Part shown: piece by piece, positions 12,871-56,038 of the stretch
Layout of the letters: each line of letters begins with the position of its first letter
Position numbering within the stretch: the first letter of the stretch is position 1
Assembly (NCBI RefSeq): GCF_023558375.1
Contig: NZ_CP083761.1
Span: 4,543,001-4,607,000 of the forward strand
DNA length: 64,000 bases
DNA from: Chroococcidiopsis sp. CCMEE 29
Lineage (GTDB): Bacteria > Cyanobacteriota > Cyanobacteriia > Cyanobacteriales > Chroococcidiopsidaceae
Direction: 5' to 3'
The notes under the pieces: generated by a model
Databases searched by the model: none
What the model was told of the DNA's origin: nothing
Seen by the model: only the letters and a program-made list of their open reading frames with translations
Made by a program: the position numbers and the translations under genes

Positions 12871-15624
12871 ATGAAGCGCCAGAGACAAGAAGTCTTAGCA
12901 TTGGTATCGCGAAGCAGTATTGCCGCCCTTTCCGCTTTCCTGCTATATGTTGGAGTTGCCAGTGCTCAACCTGCGCGCTCGAACGCTTCAGAACTGATTC
13001 TGAGCCAAGCTCTTTCGCCTCAAGAACGGGAAGAACTAGAGCAACTGCGCGAAGAACGACGAATGCAGGCGCAAACCCAAGCCGAAGTGAATCGCACCTT
13101 GGGTCGAGCGACAAGCGTGTTCAATATTTTGCTCGGCATCCTGATTTTACTGCTAGGAGCTGAGATTGCTGCATTATTGCTGCTGCGACGTGCCGCGATT
13201 CAAGAAATCGTAACTAGAGTGAAAGAACACCTACAGGATTTGGGAGACTTAGAAGGTCAAATCGCCAGAGCTAGGGCAGATGTTAAAACTAGCCTGCAAG
13301 AAGTTGATGCGATCGCACAGACAGTAGGGAGTGAAGCAGAAAATTTTCAACAGGAGATAGGCAGAGAAAGAGAAAATTTATCTAGGCTTGTCTCTTCCCT
13401 TACTCAATCAAAAGACCAAATTATTAACCAACTAGAGACACAACTCAAATCCTCTACCCAAAAGCTAGAACAATTGGAGTTGGAGTTTATTTCTCAACTC
13501 TCTGGGTTGCAGTCCGGTACTCAAAAACAACAGGAGCTAGTGCTTCATAACTTAGAAAAATCAGAACAGGAGGTTGCTGCTCAGCTTTCTAAGTTACAGG
13601 CAGATGCTCAACAACAAAAGGATCTCATTCTAGAAAATCTAGAACAAATCAAGTCAAACTTTGCACCGCAACTTGCTGAATTACAATCGGATGCTCAACA
13701 GCAACAGCAGCAAGTGCTGGGAAACCTCAAACAATTAACGTTGCAGTTCACTGCTCACCTTTCTGATCTGCAAATAGCTGCTCAACAACACAAGAATGTT
13801 ACCTTTGAAAGTTTAGAACAAATCAAGTCAAACTTTGCACCGCAACTTGCTGAATTGCAATCGAATGCTCAACAGCAACAGCAGCAAGTGCTGGAAAACC
13901 TGAAAAAATCAGAGCAGGAATTTGCTACTCAGCTTGCCGATCTACAGGCGACTGCTCAACAACAGAAGAATCTCGTTCTTAACAGTCTAAAAGACCTAAA
14001 ATCTGAATTTGCTCCGCAACTTTCTCAATTACAATTAGATACTCAAAAACAACAGAAACAGGTGTTGGAAAACCTGAAAAAACTAGAGCGTGAGTTTAAT
14101 ACTCAGCTTTCTGTGTTGCGGACAAATGCTCTACAACAAAAGCAACTAACTCTTAAAGATTTAGAAGAACTAAAATCTGAATTTGCTCCGCAACTTTCTC
14201 AATTACAATCAGATGCACAACAACAACAGGAGCAAGTACTGGAAACCCTCAAACAATTGGAGGCTGAATTCACTACTCACCTGTCTGAGTTGCAGGCGGC
14301 TGCTCAACAACAAAAAGACTTCATTCTAGAAAACCTAGAACAAATCAAGTCTGACTTTAATCCGGAACTCTCTCAATTACAGTTGGATAGCCAAAAGCAG
14401 GTTCAACAGAAAAGAGATTCTATATTAAAAAGTTTAGAACGTCTAGAGTCTGAGTTTACTGGACAACTTAGCCAATTGAGTTCGGGAGCAGACGGACAGA
14501 AAGATTTAACAATTCAGAATTTAGAAAAAATAGAGTCTGAATTTGCTGCTCAAATGTCTGAGTTAGAGTCGAATGCTCAAGCCCAAAAAGATACTATTCT
14601 CCAACAACTGGCTGAGATTTCTCCTGAATTCATAGCAGATTCTTTTGTTTCTGAAGTCCAGAAACAAATCCAAGACCTGACAGAAAAAATTGAATTTTTA
14701 AAATCTCACCATCCTCAGTTGTTTTTGACCCCTGAGGATTATGTCAACCAGGGAAATATGTTGTTCTCTGAGGGACGCTATGAAGAGGCGATCACTCAAT
14801 ACAACCAAGCAGTTGAAACTCAGGCTGATAACCCTGATGTTTGGTATCAGCGGGGTATGGCGCTGAAAGAATTACGACAGTATGAGGAGGCGATCACCTC
14901 GTTCGACAAAGTTTTGAAACTCAAGCCCGATCAATCCGTCGCCTGGTATCAGCGAGGCATTATCCTGAAAGAATTGCGACAGCACGAAGCAGCGATCGCC
15001 TCGTTTGATAAAGCAGTTAAACTTCAACCCGAAGACTACAAAGCCTGGCTCGGTCGAGGTCTGACTTTGGTAAGATTAAAGCAGTACGAAGATGCGATCA
15101 CCTCGTATGATAAAGCCCTGAAACTAAAATCTGACTATCATGAAGCTTGGGTCAATCGGGGTGTGGTGCTAGGGATTTTAGGACGGCATCAAGAAGCTTT
15201 CACGTCTTTTGATCGGGCAGTCAAATTTCAACCTGATGACTTTGTTGCTTGGTTAAATCGAGGCTTAGCCCTAGAGGAGTTGGAACAATACGAAGATGCG
15301 ATCGCCTCGTATGACAAAGCCTTGAAACTTAAGCCTGACTCTACCAAAGCTTGGGACAAGCGAGGTTATGTACTGGTGCAGCTAGGTCGCGATCCAGAAG
15401 CGATCGCTAGCTTTAATAAAGCCCTGGAGCTTAGCCCAGATTATCCCAGTGCTTACTATAATAAAGCAAGCTGTTATGCTCTACAGGGTGAAGTTGAATT
15501 AGCCCTGGAAAACTTGCAACAGGCGATCAAATTGAATCCCAGCTATCGGGAAGAGGCAAGCACTGACATAACTCTTGATCTACTGTGGGAGGAGGAGTGG
15601 TTCCGGCAGTTGATTGAAGGATAG
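12871..15624 (+). CDS. Membrane-anchored coiled-coil repeat protein with C-terminal TPRs
   Basis: A ~917-residue protein of unknown function. The N-terminus is basic followed by a hydrophobic stretch ending in VASAQPA, a plausible signal peptide or signal anchor. A second hydrophobic segment (FNILLGILILLLGAEIAALLLL, split here only for description) lies near residues 90-112. Residues ~125-214 are charged and helical. Residues 215-566 are twelve tandem 29-residue units rich in Gln, Glu, Lys and Leu. After a linker come about eight TPRs (residues ~622-900) of the type YEEAITSFDKVLKLKPD. The ATG at 12871 has AGAAGGA upstream; an earlier TTG (12847) would break the signal sequence. It may be an extended spacer or scaffold in the periplasm or at the membrane, with the TPRs as docking platform. 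Confidence 0.85.
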   Translation: MKRQRQEVLALVSRSSIAALSAFLLYVGVASAQPARSNASELILSQALSPQEREELEQLREERRMQAQTQAEVNRTLGRATSVFNILLGILILLLGAEIAALLLLRRAAIQEIVTRVKEHLQDLGDLEGQIARARADVKTSLQEVDAIAQTVGSEAENFQQEIGRERENLSRLVSSLTQSKDQIINQLETQLKSSTQKLEQLELEFISQLSGLQSGTQKQQELVLHNLEKSEQEVAAQLSKLQADAQQQKDLILENLEQIKSNFAPQLAELQSDAQQQQQQVLGNLKQLTLQFTAHLSDLQIAAQQHKNVTFESLEQIKSNFAPQLAELQSNAQQQQQQVLENLKKSEQEFATQLADLQATAQQQKNLVLNSLKDLKSEFAPQLSQLQLDTQKQQKQVLENLKKLEREFNTQLSVLRTNALQQKQLTLKDLEELKSEFAPQLSQLQSDAQQQQEQVLETLKQLEAEFTTHLSELQAAAQQQKDFILENLEQIKSDFNPELSQLQLDSQKQVQQKRDSILKSLERLESEFTGQLSQLSSGADGQKDLTIQNLEKIESEFAAQMSELESNAQAQKDTILQQLAEISPEFIADSFVSEVQKQIQDLTEKIEFLKSHHPQLFLTPEDYVNQGNMLFSEGRYEEAITQYNQAVETQADNPDVWYQRGMALKELRQYEEAITSFDKVLKLKPDQSVAWYQRGIILKELRQHEAAIASFDKAVKLQPEDYKAWLGRGLTLVRLKQYEDAITSYDKALKLKSDYHEAWVNRGVVLGILGRHQEAFTSFDRAVKFQPDDFVAWLNRGLALEELEQYEDAIASYDKALKLKPDSTKAWDKRGYVLVQLGRDPEAIASFNKALELSPDYPSAYYNKASCYALQGEVELALENLQQAIKLNPSYREEASTDITLDLLWEEEWFRQLIEG
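13513..14568 (+). repeat. Twelve tandem 87-bp (29-codon) coiled-coil repeats
   Basis: The units follow a pattern of (S/A)xAQQQ, then two hydrophobic positions, NL, a lysine or glutamate pair, F and QLxxLQ. They alternate between two subtypes (QQQVLxNLKxLExEF and KDLILENLEQIKSxF), so a 58-residue super-repeat is visible. The eleventh unit has four extra residues. A 29-residue period corresponds to eight turns at 3.625 residues per turn, close to a straight helix bundle rather than a classical left-handed heptad coil. Confidence 0.9.
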
Positions 15625-40653: not shown

Positions 40654-41943
40654 TCAGGTTGTTGAGTGGATTACCTCTAATTTGCTAGAGGGTTTTTGAG
40701 CCGTTTCTTGAGCCTTTAGAGCTTCGCTTAGGATACGCTGACCCTCAGTTAACCAAGCGTTATAGGCTGCTCTCCCTGCGATCGCTAAACGTTTACGCGT
40801 ATCTGTATCCTGTAGCGACCTAAAGGCTGCTACAAAATCCTTTGTTGTTCGACAACTATAGTAAGCTTCCGGCGTTGGTGGTACGCCACGAAACGTTTGA
40901 GGTGAACCAACTACAGGCAATCCAGTAGCCAGTGCTTCAAGCAGTTTGATCTTGCAGCCCCATCCAATCTGAACTGGTAGGCAAGCAACATCAATGTTGT
41001 ATAAAAAGGCTGGCAAATCCTCAACAAAATCGTGGATCAGGATTGTTTTTGAGGCGTACTTCCCTAGATGCTCAGTGCTACCTGGTCCGACCACATGAAA
41101 GCGGAATTTACATGGCATTGCCGCTTCAACAGCAGGAATTACTTTATGCAGAAACCATCGGGCACCTGACATATGAGTAGGACTGATGTAATTGCTGCTG
41201 AGATAAATGACATCGAGCGGCGACTTGTTGTCTTTGACCGGAATGCATTCACGCTCCAGAAAAGGTATTACCCAATCCTTAGCAACAGTTCCACCATAGA
41301 GCGAGGACATAAACTGCATATCACCATAAGAATTAAAAAATATACGGTTAGCAATCTGATGCATTTGACGCTCTGTCAAAAAGATCCTTGCAGATAAACT
41401 AGAAAAATTCTTAATCCAACTTGCAGTCTGCTGCAAAGTGCTGAGTCTCCATCCATGGCGCCATGGTCGAGTCTCAATCATCTTTTCTAAGTTGTGAGCA
41501 AGTTCAAAATTGTGGGGGCGGAACCAAAGCTGAGCCCCTTGCAAATTAAGTTGAGATGCTAACGGTACAAGGTCGGCATAATTACACCACACTATTTGGG
41601 GTCGGTGATGATCAATCAGTTGCTGGAGCTTTTGGACATGTAATACAGTTTGTGGGTCTTTTGCCGCAGACCAGCGCGAACTACGTTGAATAACGTGTAC
41701 TTCCATGTCTATTGGCAGGTCAATACCGGGCTCGCCATTAGCTTTTAAAATTTTTTCCCAACTACACACAGCCAGAATGACGCGCCAGCCAGCCTGTTTG
41801 AAGAACAGAATAAGTCCCCATATATGGATTCGGGTACCGTTAGTAGGTGGATACGGCACAGGGCAGACTACCAGGATAGTTTTCGCCACAGGCATTGAGT
41901 TTCTGATGTCAGTTGCGATATCACGTGTTTCGCTTTGTGTCAT
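40654..41943 (-). CDS. Family-4 glycosyltransferase with captured N-terminal leader
   Basis: A GT-B enzyme: VVCPVPYPPTNGTRIHIWGL (~25-44) is the acceptor-domain start, HNFELAHNLE the central loop, and GWGCKIKLLEALATGLPVVG (~330-350) the donor site with its Glu. The first 21 residues precede the normal family start and match the leader of the sulfotransferase at 42121-43002 (ET at 5-6, IA at 9-10, N15, MPV at 17-19, K21 in both). DNA similarity continues into the spacer, so the leader belongs to a duplicated 5' module and not to the enzyme family. Confidence 0.87.
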   Translation of the reverse strand: MTQSETRDIATDIRNSMPVAKTILVVCPVPYPPTNGTRIHIWGLILFFKQAGWRVILAVCSWEKILKANGEPGIDLPIDMEVHVIQRSSRWSAAKDPQTVLHVQKLQQLIDHHRPQIVWCNYADLVPLASQLNLQGAQLWFRPHNFELAHNLEKMIETRPWRHGWRLSTLQQTASWIKNFSSLSARIFLTERQMHQIANRIFFNSYGDMQFMSSLYGGTVAKDWVIPFLERECIPVKDNKSPLDVIYLSSNYISPTHMSGARWFLHKVIPAVEAAMPCKFRFHVVGPGSTEHLGKYASKTILIHDFVEDLPAFLYNIDVACLPVQIGWGCKIKLLEALATGLPVVGSPQTFRGVPPTPEAYYSCRTTKDFVAAFRSLQDTDTRKRLAIAGRAAYNAWLTEGQRILSEALKAQETAQKPSSKLEVIHSTT

Positions 41944-42095
41944 GTAGTTTGGAACCTCATGTGTTTGAACCTATCTCTGGAGCTAGTGCCTCCGCTGGTC
42001 ATAACTAACCGCACTAAAATTTCTTGAACTTATCCATTCTGGATAAGTTCAGAGTTTTCGCGCTGGCTATAGATCATGTAAAAACCAATGCCATC
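41888..42095 (-). repeat. Duplicated 5' module, copy A (with SAF-gene 3' relic)
   Basis: About 208 bp that align almost end to end with 42947-43153. It covers the first ~19 codons of the GT4 gene, its 5' spacer, and at 42052-42095 a 44-bp stretch matching the 3' part of the SAF-domain gene (44412-44455; 38 of 44 bases by my alignment). The relic would read DGIGFYM and ENSE before a stop. The module is thus a junction: end of a SAF gene, spacer and start of the next gene. Confidence 0.85.
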
Positions 42096-42120
42096 GGCTA
42101 AATTAATATTGGTGAACTCA

Positions 42121-43002
42121 TCATTTGTCCCAATCAAAATTTACACCTAAGAGTTTGTACAACTTTTCATTATGAGGTTTGAAATAGTCAACTAAATATT
42201 TTCTTGTAGTCGGGTTGATTCCTTTTGTGTAACTATTAGAATTGTATCGCTCGTATTTTTGGGGTTGCCAGCGTGGGACATCCAAAAAATCAAGTACCTT
42301 TTCAATAGTTGCTGATGGTTGAGTATCCAAGCTTTCACTGCTTAGTATCAAAATCTGATTTCTACGGAAAGCTTCTAGCCAATTTTTTAATTGCTCTACA
42401 TAAATTCCCCTAGATAAATATGAATAGTAATGAAAATTTTTATTATAGTAATTTTCATTCTCAAGCATCCTTTCCGCTAGACCATGTAGTCTCTCATTCT
42501 CTTTTGCTATTGCTTCTTCAAATGATAGGTTTTCCCTTCCCCGTCTTACTGTATGATGATAATGTGAATAAGCTCTATCAACAGGGTTTCTTAAGAGAGC
42601 TAGCAGCTTAACTTGCGGTATTGTTTCTGCAATTCTTCTAGGAGCATGAGGGTGGCAAATATAACCAGTGGATGCTTCTCCAGTGATGTGCTTTTGTCTG
42701 CCTGCTCTGTGGAACAAGGTAGGGAAGTAGCTTCGATAACAGTTAATTCCCTTGCTAAAGTGTCTACTGAAAAAAGCTATCTCTTTCCGAGCAGATGCAC
42801 TAATAGATGGGTGTTCTATCAAATATTCAAATAGCGAAGTTGTCCCACATTTTTGAGCTCCAATAATAATAAAGTCTGGCATTAACCTGATCGAGCTTGT
42901 CAGGTTTCTGTAAACTTTTGAAATACGAGCGAGACCTCTTTTACTAACAGGCATGAAGTTGCTCAGGTTGTTAGCGATCTTCTGTGTTTCATTGGAGATC
43001 AT
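42121..43002 (-). CDS. PAPS-dependent sulfotransferase
   Basis: Transfers sulfate from 3'-phosphoadenosine 5'-phosphosulfate to a sugar hydroxyl or amine; it resembles heparan N-/O-sulfotransferase-type bacterial enzymes. The 5'-phosphosulfate loop is IIGAQKCGTTSL (~46-57), the 3'-phosphate site LLRNPVDRAYSHY (~133-145), and KEIAFFSRHF lies between. The conserved core starts at MPDFIIIGAQ (residue 41). The first 21 residues are the shared leader described for the GT4 gene downstream. It indicates a sulfated polymer. Confidence 0.88.
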   Translation of the reverse strand: MISNETQKIANNLSNFMPVSKRGLARISKVYRNLTSSIRLMPDFIIIGAQKCGTTSLFEYLIEHPSISASARKEIAFFSRHFSKGINCYRSYFPTLFHRAGRQKHITGEASTGYICHPHAPRRIAETIPQVKLLALLRNPVDRAYSHYHHTVRRGRENLSFEEAIAKENERLHGLAERMLENENYYNKNFHYYSYLSRGIYVEQLKNWLEAFRRNQILILSSESLDTQPSATIEKVLDFLDVPRWQPQKYERYNSNSYTKGINPTTRKYLVDYFKPHNEKLYKLLGVNFDWDK

Positions 43003-43153
43003 ATAGTTCGGAACCTCATGAGTTTGAACGCCTATCTGAAGCAGTACGTCTGCTGGTCATAACTAACCGCACTAAAATTTCTTGAAATTATTCATTCTAG
43101 ATAACTTCAGAGTTTTCGCACTGGCTATAGATCATGTAAAAACCAATGCCATC
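42947..43153 (-). repeat. Duplicated 5' module, copy B (with SAF-gene 3' relic)
   Basis: Partner of 41888-42095, 207 bp. Its longest exact blocks are in the spacer (CTGGTCATAACTAACCGCAC and following) and in the SAF-derived end at 43110-43153. It overlaps the first codons of the sulfotransferase gene. Copies A and B flank exactly one gene, the sulfotransferase, so they form direct repeats around it. Confidence 0.85.
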
Positions 43154-43190: not shown

Positions 43191-44180
43191 TTAACTTACA
43201 CGCCTCTCACTACTAAAAATGGTGCCATCAGCCAGCAGAGGTTCAAGAGATTTTGTTACATTTACGGCATGATTCTGTCTGCACCATTTTGCCTTCAACG
43301 CTTCGATTTCTTCCTGGCTGTAAAAATGACACATATACTTCGATGTATACATTTTATTTATATAAGATTCAGGTAATAGGATAGAGTCCAAGAACTGCCG
43401 ATAAATATTACTATAGCTTTTACTACTACTAATGTTTGAATGTATCAAAGTAAAGTTATTAATGCCTAAAAAATTCTTAAAGGCATCACCTGCACACTCA
43501 TTAAGATTCTCTAGCTTGATAAGTAAAATATCAGCAAATTCAGCTTCATAAATTTCATATCCTTTTGACTTGGAAAATTCTCTTGAATAAATATCCATAC
43601 CAAACACTGCTTTTAACTCAATATCAAACCAGTTTAGAGGCTTTTCACCCTTGTATTTGTATAGAAAGAGCTCCATCAGCTCTTCAATGATATCTTCTAC
43701 TTTCATAGATTCAATTTTAGCTTGGTAGTTATGACCTACATATTCTTCAAGGATTTGAAAAAACGAAGAAATATTTCTGGCAATTGGATCTCTAACAAGA
43801 GTTACAACTTTCCATTTTTTCTTGCCTTCCAAACCCTTTTCTAGCTTTTTTCGTAAATATTGACTCTCTAAAATATGAGCAGTAATACTATGTTTATAAC
43901 GAAAACTACTTTTATAGTTTTTTTCTACTACCTCTATCCGCTCTTTTGTCAAAGAATGAATATGATAAACATCCAAATTTTTTAATGGTTGCAGTGAATC
44001 ATAAATTGTTGTAGAACCAACCTTACCCATTTGATAGACTATTACTGTTTCTCTGTCTCTGGAGTTGAGATATTGAAGAAAATTGGCGTAATAAAGCTTA
44101 GCCATACGATAAGCTTTAAGGGCATGATAATTAGCGTATAAAAGGCGTTTGATCGGGGAGTTTAATCCATTGTTTTTCAT
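43191..44180 (-). CDS. Sulfotransferase-like capsular polysaccharide protein (PF10364-type)
   Basis: Belongs in appearance to the putative capsular-polysaccharide-synthesis family related to sulfotransferases. VIVYQMGKVGSTTIYDSL (~45-62) is the P-loop-like phosphosulfate-binding site, VYHIHSL the following strand, and VVTLVRDPIARNISSFFQ (~122-139) the 3'-phosphate site. The 329-residue length is typical. It is unrelated in leader and spacer to the other sulfotransferase. A second sulfation position on the polymer is a reasonable inference. Confidence 0.8.
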   Translation of the reverse strand: MKNNGLNSPIKRLLYANYHALKAYRMAKLYYANFLQYLNSRDRETVIVYQMGKVGSTTIYDSLQPLKNLDVYHIHSLTKERIEVVEKNYKSSFRYKHSITAHILESQYLRKKLEKGLEGKKKWKVVTLVRDPIARNISSFFQILEEYVGHNYQAKIESMKVEDIIEELMELFLYKYKGEKPLNWFDIELKAVFGMDIYSREFSKSKGYEIYEAEFADILLIKLENLNECAGDAFKNFLGINNFTLIHSNISSSKSYSNIYRQFLDSILLPESYINKMYTSKYMCHFYSQEEIEALKAKWCRQNHAVNVTKSLEPLLADGTIFSSERRVS

Positions 44181-44221: not shown

Positions 44222-45532
44222 TTAAACGGTTGCAAGCGCTTTCGATGAGCTAAAATGAGCATTTTGCTCAGCCCGCAACTTGTCACACAGCCTGCCTGAA
44301 GGCAATTCCACATCGTCATAGGTGAGGACTTGGTCTTTAGCAATATCCCGCTTCAAGCGACATCCTTCAGCTAAGCCGATTGGCAGTAGGTTTTGAGCTT
44401 GGACAACCTCCGAGTTTTCACACTGACCATAGGTCATGTAGAAACCAATGCCATCAAGCGTTTCTCCAGCTTTGAGGTCAATTTTGGCAGTAGTAACGAC
44501 ATCAACCAGGGGACCAGCTAAGGGAGCCATCACAGCATCCTGAAACAGAACGGCGCGAGCCACAGATAAAGGCACCTCAAAGTGACACAAATGGTAAGGG
44601 GTGTAGAAGCTGTAAAGCGGACCTTCACCCAACTTATAAAGATTGAGATAGTGCTGTTGCTTGGGATCGTCATGGGTGGCAAACACAAATACACCCGGAC
44701 CTGGTTTGGCACCGACAACGTAATCGACTATGCCGCCCAACTGTTTAAGAGAGCCAACGTCATACATCTGGGTCATTTCATCCACATGACCGGTGTAGTC
44801 GTACCCCAGCATACCGCGCTGAGCTACTCTCATGCCTGTAGCATTGGCAACGATCGCTTGCTCGAAGGAGATCTTACTGCCATCAGCAAAGCTGGTCACC
44901 ATGTGCGGCTTTTGTCCCCAGCGTTTGGCAAACCCTTCCTGTGTCGTAGGATTGCGGTAAGGATCTTGTAGACCTTTGATGTTGCCACATAAAAGCGGAG
45001 TCAGCCCGATGCTTTTGACGAAGCGATAGAGATTCATCTGCACTCCCGGCTGGTCACCATCACAGGCGCTGAGGATTACGCCAGCACGGTCGGCATATAC
45101 TTTGAGCATCGGACCAATCGTGCCATCGAGTTCTGCATTCATCAGGATGATGTGCTTGCGGTGGGCGATCGCTTCCATCACGACATGAGCGCCAAATTCA
45201 ATCGTGCCTGTGACTTCGATGATTGCATCAATGCCTTGTGCTTGACACAACAGCATGGCATCATCGGTTATTGCATATTGCCCCCGCGCGATCGCTTCTT
45301 CCAAGTCAACAACCCTCTTGACAACTTGGACTTCTTCTATCCCTGCCTCAGTATATGCCCGCTTTGCTCCCTCCAGATTGCGGTTAAAGATGGCAACCAA
45401 TTCCATCCCCGCTACAGAGTTAACGATTTGATTGGCAATGCCTCGCCCCATAAACCCAGCACCAATCATCCCCACTCTCACAGGATTACCTGCTTCTGCC
45501 CGTGCTGCCAGCGCTCGATCAACAATAATCAT
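44222..45532 (-). CDS. NAD(P)-dependent oxidoreductase with C-terminal SAF domain
   Basis: Resembles the predicted homoserine-dehydrogenase-like proteins with a SAF domain. The Rossmann loop is VGMIGAGFMGRGIANQI (~20-36); the middle has IEVTGTIEFGAHV and ILSACDGDQPGVQM; the C-terminal ~100 residues (KAGETLDGIG onward) form the SAF part with LPIGLAEGCRLKRDI, a fold also found in sialic-acid synthases and antifreeze proteins. It is often, and wrongly, called FlgA because of the SAF domain. The substrate is unknown; company with rfbF, an SDR and an RfbC-like epimerase suggests a role in unusual sugar formation. Its 3' end has left relics at 43110-43153 and 42052-42095. Confidence 0.8.
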   Translation of the reverse strand: MIIVDRALAARAEAGNPVRVGMIGAGFMGRGIANQIVNSVAGMELVAIFNRNLEGAKRAYTEAGIEEVQVVKRVVDLEEAIARGQYAITDDAMLLCQAQGIDAIIEVTGTIEFGAHVVMEAIAHRKHIILMNAELDGTIGPMLKVYADRAGVILSACDGDQPGVQMNLYRFVKSIGLTPLLCGNIKGLQDPYRNPTTQEGFAKRWGQKPHMVTSFADGSKISFEQAIVANATGMRVAQRGMLGYDYTGHVDEMTQMYDVGSLKQLGGIVDYVVGAKPGPGVFVFATHDDPKQQHYLNLYKLGEGPLYSFYTPYHLCHFEVPLSVARAVLFQDAVMAPLAGPLVDVVTTAKIDLKAGETLDGIGFYMTYGQCENSEVVQAQNLLPIGLAEGCRLKRDIAKDQVLTYDDVELPSGRLCDKLRAEQNAHFSSSKALATV

Positions 45533-45584
45533 GATTCAGTTCCTCCAAAATTTCTAGCAGACGTGATACCGTTCTCGGTTTGAA

Positions 45585-47648: not shown

Positions 47649-47688
47649 TTAGTACAAGCTGGAAGCATTTAGTTGCTCATAATCATAA

Positions 47689-48239: not shown

Positions 48240-49262
48240 CTATCTCCATAAGAAATTTTGATCAATTTGCTGTGTACGAATTAGGTACTCTAACTGTTTC
48301 AAACGAGTAAAGCCTCGGAAAAAAAAGGTGTCCACAGGCATATCAATTAGAGTGAACAAATCAAATAGCTGTTTTGCCCCACGAACCGCATCCCAGTCGC
48401 ATTTAAATCCGGGCAGTAACTTGTTAATCTTTTCGAAAGAGACGCGATAACTACGGTTGTCTGCACTACTGTCCCCTAAGCTCAATTGGCATCCTTTGAA
48501 GGTATTAGCAACTATCTCAGCAATTTCTTTGACTTGATAGTTGTGAGCAGTGTCACCCACATTAAAGATTTGGTTGTGAACAATGTCACGCGGAGCTTCG
48601 AGTGTGCAAACAATAGCCTTACAGATATCCAGCACGTGTACCAATGGACGCCAAGGAGTGCCGTCACTGGTCATCTTAATTTCTTTAATCGTCCAAGCTA
48701 GCCCTGCCAGATTATTCAAAACAATATCAAAGCGCATTCGCGGAGAGGCACCAAAAGCTGTGGCATTCCGCATAAAGGTGGGAGAGAAACTTTCATCAGC
48801 CATCGTCTTCACGTCTTGCTCTACCATCGTCTTGCAGATTGCATAGGCTGTTTGTGGATTGACAGGGGACTCTTCAGTGACGTCGTTACCAGTAGCAACA
48901 CCATATACACTGCATGAAGACATGTAGATAAAGCGACGCACGCCAGCTGCCTTAGCTAATGTTGCCAAGTGAACTGAACCCTTATGATTAATGTCGTAGG
49001 TAATGGTGGGAGATAATTCTCCGGCTGGATCGTTGGAAAGCTCAGCCATATGAACCACTGCCTCGACATCTTGAAGATCCTCAACAGCGATCTGCCGGAT
49101 ATCTTTGTTGAGGGTTTTGGAAGTTAGCTGTGTGCCATTGTACAACCAGCCAACTTTATAAAATCCTGTATCTACTCCGATGACTTCGTGCCCGCGTTGC
49201 ATCAACATAGGAGCCAGCAAAGAGCCGATGTAGCCTTCAGTTCCAGTAACAAGTATTTTCAT
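48240..49262 (-). CDS. NAD-dependent epimerase/dehydratase (extended SDR)
   Basis: An extended short-chain dehydrogenase acting on a nucleotide sugar. The NAD loop is TGTEGYIGSLLA (7-18), the Ser of MSSCSVYG (~113-120) and the YxxxK pair in TAYAICK (~138-144) are catalytic, and WRPLVHVLDICKAI (~205-218) binds the substrate. The 340-residue length is normal. It is co-directional with, and closely coupled to, the RfbC-like epimerase. Its upstream spacer carries a 3' relic of lhgO, which suggests that lhgO once lay directly before it. Confidence 0.88.
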   Translation of the reverse strand: MKILVTGTEGYIGSLLAPMLMQRGHEVIGVDTGFYKVGWLYNGTQLTSKTLNKDIRQIAVEDLQDVEAVVHMAELSNDPAGELSPTITYDINHKGSVHLATLAKAAGVRRFIYMSSCSVYGVATGNDVTEESPVNPQTAYAICKTMVEQDVKTMADESFSPTFMRNATAFGASPRMRFDIVLNNLAGLAWTIKEIKMTSDGTPWRPLVHVLDICKAIVCTLEAPRDIVHNQIFNVGDTAHNYQVKEIAEIVANTFKGCQLSLGDSSADNRSYRVSFEKINKLLPGFKCDWDAVRGAKQLFDLFTLIDMPVDTFFFRGFTRLKQLEYLIRTQQIDQNFLWR

Positions 49263-49271
49263 GGGTGTTAA

Positions 49272-49342
49272 ATTCTATACGCTAAGTGCTGCTTGTAGGT
49301 ACGGCTGCTCAGGAATCTACTCAATGAGCATGCCAATTTCAA
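49272..49342 (-). pseudogene. Relic of the 3' end of lhgO
   Basis: The spacer upstream of the SDR gene matches the last ~75 bp of the lhgO gene (53168-53241) with a few substitutions and a 3-bp gap: TTCTATACG, TAAGTGCT, CGGCTGCTCAGGAATCT and TGCCAATTTC occur in the same order in both. The two copies are in direct orientation and flank a 3.8-kb block holding GT61, glf relic, IS630 and a GT2-like gene. Confidence 0.85.
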
Positions 49343-51150: not shown

Positions 51151-52107
51151 TATAGCCGTCGCCATAAAGGTTAGGACGCGGCAACCTTAAGAACAGACTC
51201 CATCGCCTGCCGCAGGGAAGCAGAGTCAGATAAGCACTTGCGAATCCGAGTTTTAAGCCAAGCCCAGCACTTCTCAATTCGGTTCAAGTCTGGGGAATAA
51301 GCAGGGAGATACAACAGGCGACATCCAACTGACTCAACCAAAGCTGCAATACGTCCGCCATGATGGAACGTCGCATTATCCAAAATCACCACCTGTCCAG
51401 GCTGAAGCGTCGGCAGCAAACAAGTTGCTAGCCAGGTTTCAAACACCACTCGATTACACGCACCTTCCACCGTAAAGGGAGCACTCAACTGTCGCTCACA
51501 GTAGGCAGCAATCATGTTGACTCGCCCGGCTCTGCGTCCTGACTTGAGCGCCTCAAATCGCTTGCCCCGCTCACACCAACCATAGCCATAGTCGTCGCGC
51601 TCGTCCATTCCCGATTCATCTACATATACCCGTTGTGATGCTGGAATCTCTGCCAGTTGAGCTAGGAACGCGACGCGTTTAGCTTCATCACGTTCTCGGT
51701 AGCCATAGCTCTTTTTTTTCGAGTCCAGCCGATATGTGCCAAAGCACGAGACATCGTGCGTTCACTCATCTCTTTGTGCCACCGTTGCGCCATTTCAGCT
51801 TGGGTCTTGTCGCCGTACTTTTGGGCGAAGGCTCGAAACTCGTCCCAATCGCTGATGCGGTGACTGTGCCCTCGTTGATAGCCTTGCACAGCTTGTACAT
51901 TTCCAGTCTGATCCCGGCGCTTCAACCATCGGTCAATTGTGTCGCGGCTGATATTAAACATGTGGCTGACATGGCTTTTCTTTTCGCCACGGTCAATGGC
52001 TGCCATCACTTTTGAGCGGAAATCATCACTGTAGGGAGCAGGCATACGAGTATTTGAGATTATCTATTCCCTCTCAATATGCCGCAACCCTTCCGGCGAC
52101 GGCTATA
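51151..52107 (-). mobile_element. IS630-family insertion sequence
   Basis: Terminal inverted repeats are TATAGCCGTCGCC at 51151-51163 and its complement at 52095-52107, with similarity continuing a few bases inward. Both ends start with TA, the target dinucleotide duplicated by IS630/Tc1-mariner elements. The unit is about 950 bp and carries one transposase in two frames. It sits between a GT2-like gene and the glf relic. Confidence 0.9.
51171..52045 (-). CDS. IS630 transposase in two frames, probable programmed -1 frameshift
   Basis: The 5' frame (51662-52045) encodes a helix-turn-helix DNA-binding region: SHMFNISRDTIDRWLKRR, then QGYQRGHSHRI. The 3' frame (51171-51608 within a longer open reading) holds the DDE domain: YVDESGMD (first Asp), VVILDNATFHHG (second Asp) and SPDLNRIEKCWAWLK (Glu). 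Eight A residues (complement of 51712-51719) lie where the frames meet. A -1 slip there reads on as KKKSYGYRERDEAKRVAFLAQ-type sequence without a stop. Many IS630 elements use slippage on such A-runs, so the transposase is probably intact. Confidence 0.85.
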
Positions 52108-52954: not shown

Positions 52955-53168
52955 AAAGCTTTATCTTCCTTAATTTACAGGTTGAAACTTTACTCTTTTT
53001 CTTCAGTTTTAGTACCTGAAATCTCCGTTTAACTACCCCTAATCTAGGGAAATGTTTTGGTCCTGTTTCTCCTGGAGCATAAGAGCAGCAACTTCGTTAG
53101 AAGCTCACGTTAAAAGAAAACTTCCGGAAAAGTTTTGACATGACAAGCATCTTCATGGATGACAAGTT

Positions 53169-54383
53169 CTATACGTTAAGTGCTACTTGTAGATGCGGCT
53201 GCTCAGGAATCTGCTCAACGATCGCTTTGCCAATTTCGATGGAAGAAGTAGCTGCTGGAGAAGGAGCATTGCAAACATGAACCGAGTTCTGACCTTTAAC
53301 AATTAAGAAATCGTCCACCAGCTTGCCGTCGTTCATTAAAGCTTGTGCACGAACACCCGCATGGGTAGGAATGAGGTCGTCTGCTTGCACTTCCGGAATT
53401 AGCCTTTGTAAGCTACGGACAAAGGCAGCTTTATAAAAGGAGCGAATCATTTCCTGGATACCTTCATCTGCATGTTTGGCTGCCAGCTTCCAGAAACCAG
53501 GATAAGTCATGACCTCAGCAAAATCCCCAAGGTCAAAGTCTGTCTTTTTGTAGCCCTCACGCTTGAAGCTGAGAACTGCATTCGGTCCAGCGTGAACACT
53601 TCCATCAATCATGCGAGTGAAGTGAACACCTAGGAAGGGAAAATCTGGATTAGGAACCGGATAAATCAGGGTCTTGACGAGGTAGCGTTTCTCTGGTTTG
53701 AGTTCGTAGTATTCTCCCCGAAAGGGGACGATCTTAGCTTGAGGGTTAACTTGTCCCAATTTGGCAATGCGATCACTATGCAGTCCAGCACAATTAATTA
53801 CAGTGCGAGTTTCAAATGTATCTTTATTTGTTTCAAGCACTTGACCTTTACTTGTGTTGGAGATTTTTTCAACTTTGGTGTTGAGACGAAGTTCTCCTCC
53901 TTGAATTTCGATCAAGTCAGCATATTTTTGGCAAACCTGCTTATAGTCAACAATTCCAGTTGTGGGTACCCTAATTCCTGCCAGACAGCGCACATGAGGT
54001 TCAATCTCTTGAACTTCTTTTGCACTAATTTTGGTAACACTTAGACTATTTTCCAGACCACGCTTATAGAGATTTTCTAGCAGCGGCAGTTCCTTTTCCT
54101 CAGTGGCAACAATTACTTTGCCACACATTTCATGGGCAATGCCATGCGCTTGGCAGAACTCCACCATTGAGCGACTGCCCTCACGGCAAAACTTGGCCTT
54201 GAAGCTTCCAGGTTTGTAGTAAATGCCAGAGTGAATGACGCCGCTATTATTACCAGTCTGATGATACGCCCAAGTGCTTTCTTTCTCCAACACAACAATG
54301 CGTGCATTAGGATAGCGTTTCCCCAACGCCATGGCGCTAGCCAAACCCACAATCCCGCCGCCGATCAGCGCAAAGTCATACAT
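53169..54383 (-). CDS. lhgO: L-2-hydroxyglutarate oxidase-like FAD enzyme
   Basis: A DAO-family flavoprotein that in E. coli oxidises L-2-hydroxyglutarate to 2-oxoglutarate. The FAD loop is FALIGGGIVGLASAMAL (4-20); HQTGNNSGVIHSGIYY (~41-56) is the LhgO hallmark after it; the C-terminus has RAQALMNDGKLVDDFLI and NAPSPAATSSIEIG. The 404-residue length is right. It begins 12 bp after... the rfbF stop, within the same transcript, so its role here may be oxidation of a sugar acid or recycling of 2-hydroxyglutarate and not general metabolism. Confidence 0.9.
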   Translation of the reverse strand: MYDFALIGGGIVGLASAMALGKRYPNARIVVLEKESTWAYHQTGNNSGVIHSGIYYKPGSFKAKFCREGSRSMVEFCQAHGIAHEMCGKVIVATEEKELPLLENLYKRGLENSLSVTKISAKEVQEIEPHVRCLAGIRVPTTGIVDYKQVCQKYADLIEIQGGELRLNTKVEKISNTSKGQVLETNKDTFETRTVINCAGLHSDRIAKLGQVNPQAKIVPFRGEYYELKPEKRYLVKTLIYPVPNPDFPFLGVHFTRMIDGSVHAGPNAVLSFKREGYKKTDFDLGDFAEVMTYPGFWKLAAKHADEGIQEMIRSFYKAAFVRSLQRLIPEVQADDLIPTHAGVRAQALMNDGKLVDDFLIVKGQNSVHVCNAPSPAATSSIEIGKAIVEQIPEQPHLQVALNV

Positions 54384-55169: not shown

Positions 55170-56038
55170 GAGTTTATCTCCTAATCCTTAAAGAACCTAT
55201 TTTGTCTTCTTAACGTAAGCTAATTAGCGCTGCCATTTAGATAAGCAGAAAGGTATTACGATAGTGCAGCTTCTGCTAACTAAGTGTATTCAGCTTTTAT
55301 AACTACTGAAGGCTAAGTGAAATTTATTATCTAAATATTTTCCAGCCTACCTAAACTAATTTCACTCCACAGTATTATTATTCTCAAAAATATTTTCCAG
55401 CCTACCTAAACTAATTTCACTCCACAGTATTATTATTCTCAAAAATATTTTCCAGCCTACCTAAACTCTAGTTTGCTAGAGACAATATCAGGCTACAAAA
55501 CTCCTGAACTTATACATATAGACAAGTTTTGATCTTCACTTTAAATATTTATATTGTGAGGACAAGAAAATTTTCCATCAGTAAACCGACAAAAACCAAA
55601 ATTGGAGTTTGGTTACCTACGCACCAGCTTTAAATGGCATGTGCTTTACCCATTTTAAGTAAGCATTTACTAATCATTTTTCTATTTAGGCAGCCATTAT
55701 CAGAACTCACACGAATACTGAATTTGAAAACCGTAATCTTACTGGAATTATGCTCAGCTACTGAATCTGAAAACCGTAATTTCACAGTTGAGTCATTTCC
55801 TGAGTAAGTTCTATCGTTTTTGCAAGTAATGCTCAAACTCCTTCTGAATCTTGCTTTTATATCGTTTGTCACCCCGTCAGCTTTAGTTTAGAGCTTAAAG
55901 TTTGAAAACTCTTTGACGCCTTAGCGCTGCACACAAGTCATCTTTAATCTGAGCTATTTAGTTTAATTTGATACATTTTCCACACATCAATTTTTGGACA
56001 GGTATAAAAATAACACTTTATTTGTGGAGGAATTAAAC
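55170..56038. promoter_or_regulatory. Divergent spacer between rfbF and polysaccharide lyase genes
   Basis: An 869-bp AT-rich region that must contain the promoters of rfbF and its followers (leftward) and of the lyase gene (rightward). It holds the 55-bp tandem repeats at 55333-55468. A word close to TACTGAATCTGAAAACCGTA occurs twice at ~55728 and ~55761. A short minus-strand frame (55630-55872) spans these but has no recognisable protein or ribosome-binding site. Its size suits a major regulatory region of the locus. Confidence 0.55.
55333..55468. repeat. 55-bp tandem direct repeats, about 2.5 copies
   Basis: The unit starts AAATATTTTCCAGCCTACCT and includes TTTCACTCCACAGTATTATT. Copies start at 55333, 55388 and 55443; the first two are essentially identical and the third is cut after CCTACCTAAACT. 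The repeat lies about 165 bp upstream of rfbF and could be a set of regulator sites or a recent slippage product. Confidence 0.95.

What the first reader, a model, noticed from the sequence alone, without database searches (positions are those of the whole stretch)
41888..43153. One 207-208 bp segment begins two unrelated genes and gives them the same 21-residue leader
Segments 41888-42095 and 42947-43153 align nearly end to end and include the first codons of a GT4 gene and of a sulfotransferase. The two proteins share E5 T6, I9 A10, N15, M17 P18 V19 and K21, although their enzymes are unrelated. The conserved family cores begin only after this leader. This looks like swapping of a coding body behind a fixed regulatory and translation-start module.
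Basis: seen in the sequence. Interest (0 to 1): 0.78.

Follow-up and report, generated by a model that had tools for sequence, protein, structure and literature searches.

The report
Duplicated gene junction flanking an insertion
In a cyanobacterial sugar-polymer gene cluster, a sulfotransferase gene was inserted near the start of a glycosyltransferase gene by an event that copied about 208 bases, so both genes now begin with related versions of the same short leader; a second insert in the same cluster clearly shows the same kind of scar and two more suggest it.

Summary
41888-42095 and 42947-43153 (minus strand) are direct copies, 83% identical, which include the start codons and first 19 codons of the GT4 and sulfotransferase (ST) genes.

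(1) The leader belongs to GT4. GT4 orthologs in three related species carry it, with no alternative start codon. The ST homologs examined lack it, so ST acquired it.

(2) The copied segment is not a conserved regulatory module. Its first 56 nt are a fragment of the DRL/SAF oxidoreductase gene that lies two genes upstream. The full segment occurs nowhere else in this genome, nor in about 390 genomes of the order. It has no promoter-like match.

(3) A second insert in the cluster shows the same scar. The FAD-tail/epimerase-head junction (95 nt, 82% identical) flanks a three-gene insert. A third insert (GDSL gene) sits inside the first codons of DRL.

Best explanation: insertions that duplicate the target junction, like single-crossover integration, leaving the upstream gene whole and the downstream gene with its own start. 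At ST the leader happened to join in frame. Unexplained: the leaders (63% nt identity) have diverged far more than the first 102 nt of the repeat (95%).

The parts
41888..42095 (-). repeat copy A: DRL fragment + spacer + Shine-Dalgarno + first 19 codons of GT4
42947..43153 (-). repeat copy B: DRL fragment + spacer + Shine-Dalgarno + first 19 codons of the sulfotransferase ORF
42040..42095 (-). 56-nt DRL-derived fragment in copy A (82% to the DRL gene)
43098..43153 (-). 56-nt DRL-derived fragment in copy B (86% to the DRL gene)
44402..44457 (-). source-type sequence inside the intact DRL gene, 60 codons before its end
44222..45532 (-). DRL/SAF-domain oxidoreductase (PF21135), intact; 97% aa identical paralog at G000 C1:523249-524547
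43191..44180 (-). NKWYS / sulfotransferase-like gene (PF10364) between intact DRL and copy B
42121..43002 (-). sulfotransferase (PF00685, residues 42-272); residues 1-19 are GT4-type leader, native ST N-terminus begins at about residue 20-24
40654..41943 (-). GT4-type glycosyltransferase (PF13692); leader native, present in orthologs of g2
41955..41958 (-). GAGG Shine-Dalgarno-like, 11 nt before GT4 ATG; equivalent at 43014-43017 for ST
   Evidence: sequence
42025..42051 (-). 12-bp hairpin in copy A; its left arm is the 3' end of the DRL fragment; imperfect in copy B
   Evidence: z -5.8 for A, -1.5 for B
53143..53237 (-). 3' end of the FAD-dependent oxidoreductase gene + stop + first 14 nt of an NDP-sugar epimerase-like start: left copy of a second duplicated junction
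49249..49340 (-). FAD-gene tail relic + true start of the NDP-sugar epimerase: right copy of the second duplicated junction, 82% identical
47679..47686 (-). ATGATTAT after the dTDP-sugar epimerase stop: remnant of the native epimerase/DRL junction, cut by the GDSL insert
45533..45544 (-). 12 nt before DRL identical to the dTDP-epimerase tail of the paralogous cluster L005

Best explanation
The repeat is the footprint of an insertion, not a reusable expression module. A junction made of a DRL-gene fragment, a spacer and the head of GT4 was duplicated when a sulfotransferase gene was inserted after codon 19 of GT4. The left copy now starts ST, because the GT4 head happened to join the ST body in frame. 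The right copy kept GT4 whole, with its own ribosome-binding site and start. The most likely molecular route (inferred) is single-crossover integration of a small circularised DNA, or an equivalent insertion-duplication, which leaves the insert between direct copies of 0.1-0.2 kb of target. The cluster carries a second clear scar of this kind and two weaker ones. Selection (inferred) explains why such events persist: in a packed operon only an insertion that copies the junction keeps both the upstream gene's end and the downstream gene's start. Partial gene conversion between the copies later homogenised their left 100 nt (inferred).
For: Repeat confirmed. Leader native to GT4: three g2 orthologs (67% aa in the core) have MIYSETEKLAPDITN at the same place and no other start codon. 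The ST homologs examined (29 loci) lack it; their similarity to ST begins near residue 19 or later and none shows the leader. The 5' 56 nt are DRL-derived. Second scar: 53143-53237 and 49249-49340, 95 nt, 82%, E 4e-19, flank GTA + IS + g49404 between FAD and NDP-epimerase, which lie 12 nt apart in the paralogous cluster L005. Third, weaker: the dTDP-epimerase stop is followed by TTATGATTAT, the native junction of relatives, before the GDSL gene, and the intact DRL follows. Fourth: DRL - NKWYS - DRL fragment. Experimental precedent: in E. coli, single-crossover integrants carried 109-950 bp duplications of the target (PMC3240628).
Against: The DRL fragment is internal (it stops 60 codons before the gene's end), so the pre-insertion junction was already rearranged and is not seen intact in any genome. 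The leaders differ by 37% (ungapped) against 5% in the first 102 nt (Fisher p = 4e-7), which simple duplication does not give; the conversion step is inferred. In relatives, inserts at the same junctions mostly show no such copies (one weak case, L134), so the mode is not general. The GDSL scar is only about 20 nt.
Confidence: 0.6

Rival explanations
1. Tandem duplication of the repeat plus GT4, then replacement of the first GT4 body by ST (loss of the GT4 copy and gain of ST in one or more steps).
For: Gives the same R-ST-R-GT4 order and makes the leader-ST join a later event; the leaders' divergence (A, B and g2 leaders about equidistant: 28, 29 and 27 of 48 nt) would suit an old GT4 duplication.
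Against: No GT4 remnant lies between ST and copy A: only 25 nt separate the ST stop from the repeat. The FAD/epimerase scar, which flanks unrelated genes, needs no such step.
Confidence: 0.2
2. One reading: a fixed regulatory and translation-start module behind which coding bodies are swapped repeatedly, as in Rhs/CDI or T6SS effector displacement.
For: Two unrelated bodies behind one leader; a head-anchored, one-sided recombination of this kind is proposed for V. cholerae effector-immunity arrays (PMC5361080).
Against: Only two full copies in the genome; none in about 390 genomes of the order; upstream part absent from g2, where the leader is present; no promoter-like match; GT4 was not displaced or truncated.
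Confidence: 0.1
3. The leader is a functional N-terminal element (targeting or complex assembly) selected in both enzymes, acquired by copying.
For: The reading frame is kept through many substitutions and two pairs of compensating indels; leader identical in three g2 species.
Against: Other GT4 homologs (G144; G385 and L102, whose matches begin at residues 17-19) lack it, as do ST homologs. ST and GT4 leaders are only 48% identical. Shared upstream noncoding DNA is enough to explain the likeness.
Confidence: 0.06
4. The 208-nt segment is a small mobile element (MITE-like).
For: Discrete ends in both copies; a 7-bp inverted match (GGCATTG) near the ends of copy A (seen in the sequence).
Against: Two copies only; contains a DRL-gene piece and conserved GT4 codons; no target-site duplication seen.
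Confidence: 0.02

Closest known systems
Single-crossover (Campbell-type) insertion-duplication, including the 109-950 bp target duplications recovered in E. coli (PMC3240628)
   Same: Insert flanked by direct copies of a short stretch of target; the size range of the experimental case (109-950 bp) is close to the 95 and 208 nt here; upstream gene left whole.
   Different: Here inferred from old, diverged copies; at ST the duplicated head became the start of the inserted gene; no donor circle known.
Homology-facilitated illegitimate recombination
   Same: One-sided homology plus an illegitimate join could put a new body next to an existing gene head.
   Different: In the cited experiment it was predicted to delete part of the target; here target is duplicated.
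Rhs / CDI / T6SS displacement arrays (for example V. cholerae immunity arrays, PMC5361080)
   Same: A new body joined behind a shared 5' stretch, with the old gene pushed downstream.
   Different: No toxin or immunity genes, no truncated old bodies, no recurrence in relatives, two copies only.
Horizontal regulatory transfer / promoter capture (known to me from general knowledge; one search lists papers that use the term)
   Same: A gene acquires the 5' region of another gene.
   Different: The copy includes codons and arises by local duplication within one cluster; no promoter-like match in it.

Membership tests
Insertion-duplication (single-crossover type) scar | Insert lies between direct copies of a stretch of the target | tested here: met
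   R copies flank ST; FAD/epimerase junction copies flank GTA-IS-g49404
Insertion-duplication (single-crossover type) scar | The target exists uninterrupted in a relative or paralog | tested here: inconclusive
   Met for FAD/epimerase in L005 and several relatives; not found for the DRL fragment-GT4 junction
Insertion-duplication (single-crossover type) scar | Donor circle or plasmid carrying homology and insert | tested here: inconclusive
   Repeat not found in 72,556 plasmid records, but no sister strain or its plasmids are held
Swappable 5' module (Rhs/CDI-like) | Same 5' segment before several different bodies across strains | tested here: not met
   (two bodies in one genome only)
Swappable 5' module (Rhs/CDI-like) | Displaced, truncated older bodies downstream | tested here: not met
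   GT4 is full length and aligns with orthologs from residue 1
Transposon / MITE | Multiple copies with terminal inverted repeats and target-site duplications | tested here: not met
   Two copies in the genome; no inverted-repeat pairs reported
GT4 glycosyltransferase | Glycosyl transferases group 1 domain above the curated cut-off | tested here: met
   PF13692, 61.3 bits against a cut-off of 27
PF00685 sulfotransferase | Domain above the curated cut-off | tested here: met
   83.1 bits against a cut-off of 22, residues 42-272

The most novel reading that the evidence does not exclude
Compact polysaccharide operons in this lineage grow by a recurrent insertion mode that cuts inside the first codons of the downstream gene and duplicates the gene junction, so that inserted genes sometimes inherit a neighbour's ribosome-binding site and N-terminus in frame: a ready route by which foreign genes gain expression and new N-termini.
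Probability: 0.22. Interest if true: 0.6.

Novelty: new member of a known kind. Interest (0 to 1): 0.4.

Why it matters
It gives a concrete sequence record of how a foreign gene can enter a packed operon without breaking it, and how it can pick up a working start and a new N-terminus from its neighbour. Two clear and two weaker scars in one cluster make operon growth by junction duplication testable by comparing sister strains. It also warns that shared N-terminal leaders between unrelated enzymes can be insertion footprints instead of functional modules.

Tried and rejected
DRL 'fragments' in G002, G003, G006 and G008 first looked like recurrent relics, but they lie at contig ends and are assembly breaks in multi-copy DRL genes. 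Genome-contig scans with GT4 gave nothing, then one homolog matched only from residue 17. Plasmid search negative. The spacer does not align with the DRL tail (score 14, shuffles mean 15). A 13-nt identity between the DRL fragment (ACATGATCTATAG) and the g2 GT4 start scored 26, within the range reached by shuffles of the same sequence (maxima 39 and 28), and was set aside. No Rfam match; no sigma-70-like promoter in the repeat. Junction copies were sought at the gaps of 100 nt or more in relatives: one weak hit (L134 dTDP-epimerase/DRL, score 33, shuffle maximum 27). The FAD relic is absent before the g2 epimerase, so that event is not shared with g2.

Full report
Observation. On the minus strand, 42095-41888 (copy A) and 43153-42947 (copy B) align end to end, score 242 against a shuffled maximum of 31, 83% by BLASTN. 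The alignment passes through both start codons to codon 19. The leaders MTQSETRDIATDIRNSMPVAK (GT4) and MISNETQKIANNLSNFMPVSK (ST) share 10 of 21 residues, far above chance. The finding's coordinates are exact.

What the segment contains. Its first 56 nt are a copy of an internal piece of the DRL/SAF oxidoreductase gene (44402-44457 in gene 44222-45532; 86% to B, 82% to A). Then come a spacer, a GAGG ribosome-binding-site-like motif 11 nt before the ATG, and the leader codons. No sigma-70-like promoter and no Rfam family match in it. Copy A, not B, forms a strong 12-bp hairpin whose left arm is the end of the DRL fragment.

Whose leader is it? GT4 orthologs in three species of genus g2 (core 67% aa identity) begin MIYSETEKLAPDITN and have no other start codon before the conserved core. 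Their upstream sequence is unrelated to the repeat; the best match is a 13-nt stretch within the shuffle range. So the leader is part of GT4 and must be translated there. In more distant GT4 homologs the match begins only at residues 17-19 (G144, G385, L102). ST homologs, up to 55% identical, have other N-termini, and none of the 29 examined shows the leader (similarity to ST begins at about residue 20 or later, with one whole-genome match from 12). ST therefore received the leader. Neither ORF start has a better in-frame alternative: for ST the only candidates are M1 and M17.

How widespread? The genome (6.39 Mb) holds only these two full copies, plus the DRL fragment inside two DRL genes. 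Among 391 genomes of the order, other genomes match only the first 42-57 nt, the DRL-derived part. A search with the leader peptide finds only these two genes.

The wider pattern. A paralogous cluster in the same genome (L005) has RfbF-FAD-NDPepimerase-dTDPepimerase-DRL, with FAD and NDP-epimerase 12 nt apart and dTDP-epimerase overlapping DRL. In the window these neighbours are split by inserts. At FAD/NDP-epimerase, both sides of the GTA-IS-g49404 insert carry the FAD tail plus the first 14 nt of the epimerase (53143-53237 and 49249-49340, 82%, E 4e-19). The left side has a whole FAD gene and a cut epimerase head; the right side has a cut FAD tail and a whole epimerase. At dTDP-epimerase/DRL the epimerase stop is followed by TTATGATTAT, matching the native junction of relatives, and then by the GDSL gene; the whole DRL follows it, preceded by 12 nt identical to the L005 epimerase tail. 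This third case is short and so weaker. A fourth is DRL - NKWYS - DRL fragment. The ST case fits the same scheme: cut GT4 head plus ST on the left, whole GT4 on the right.

Mechanism. Shown: duplicated junctions flank inserts; the GT4 head is fused in frame to ST; GT4 is intact. Inferred: each insert came by an event that duplicates the target. Single-crossover integration of circularised DNA is the best experimental parallel: in E. coli, 56 of 60 Lac-negative clones gave a duplication signal and the 14 sequenced ones carried 109-950 bp of duplicated target (PMC3240628). Also inferred: selection keeps only insertions that preserve the upstream gene's end and the downstream gene's start. In relatives, inserts at the same junctions rarely show such copies (one weak case in L134), so I do not claim a general mechanism.

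Unexplained. Identity between copies is 97/102 on the left, 40/52 columns in the next stretch, and 36/57 (ungapped) in the leader codons (p = 4e-7 for left against leader). The A, B and g2 leaders are about equally distant from one another. Either the duplication is old and the left part was later homogenised by gene conversion, or ST's leader came with the donor DNA from another GT4 lineage, or the leader changed fast after fusion. Two sequences cannot decide.

Verdict. Observation confirmed. The 'fixed module with swapped bodies' reading is only partly supported. This is best filed as an insertion-duplication scar with in-frame capture of a neighbour's leader, a new instance of a known kind, made more interesting by a second clear scar and two weaker ones in the same cluster.

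Noticed in passing
window 44222-45532 versus L005 8250-9563: The two DRL paralogs are 94.6% identical in DNA (97% aa), while neighbouring paralogs in the two clusters are 77-79% in DNA, which suggests recent gene conversion or transfer of DRL alone between clusters.
   Followed up: partly
window 51171-52045: IS element of the IS630 type (named from the ORF sequences, not searched) with two short ORFs, inside the FAD/epimerase insert; probably a secondary insertion.
   Followed up: no
window 42025-42051: Perfect 12-bp hairpin in copy A formed between the DRL fragment's end and the spacer's start; in copy B one base pair changes on both sides (C-G to G-U), one is weakened and one is lost. Could be a template-switch product or a processing site.
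   Followed up: partly
window 13483-14478 and 14878-15401: Two tandem arrays with periods of 87 and 102 nt, multiples of three, likely in repeat proteins.
   Followed up: no
window 55333-55497: 55-bp direct repeat, two identical copies and a third partial one, upstream of the RfbF gene.
   Followed up: no
L134 (G096), between dTDP-epimerase and DRL: Weak relic of the dTDP-epimerase tail before DRL (score 33, shuffle maximum 27): a possible independent case of junction duplication in another genus.
   Followed up: partly
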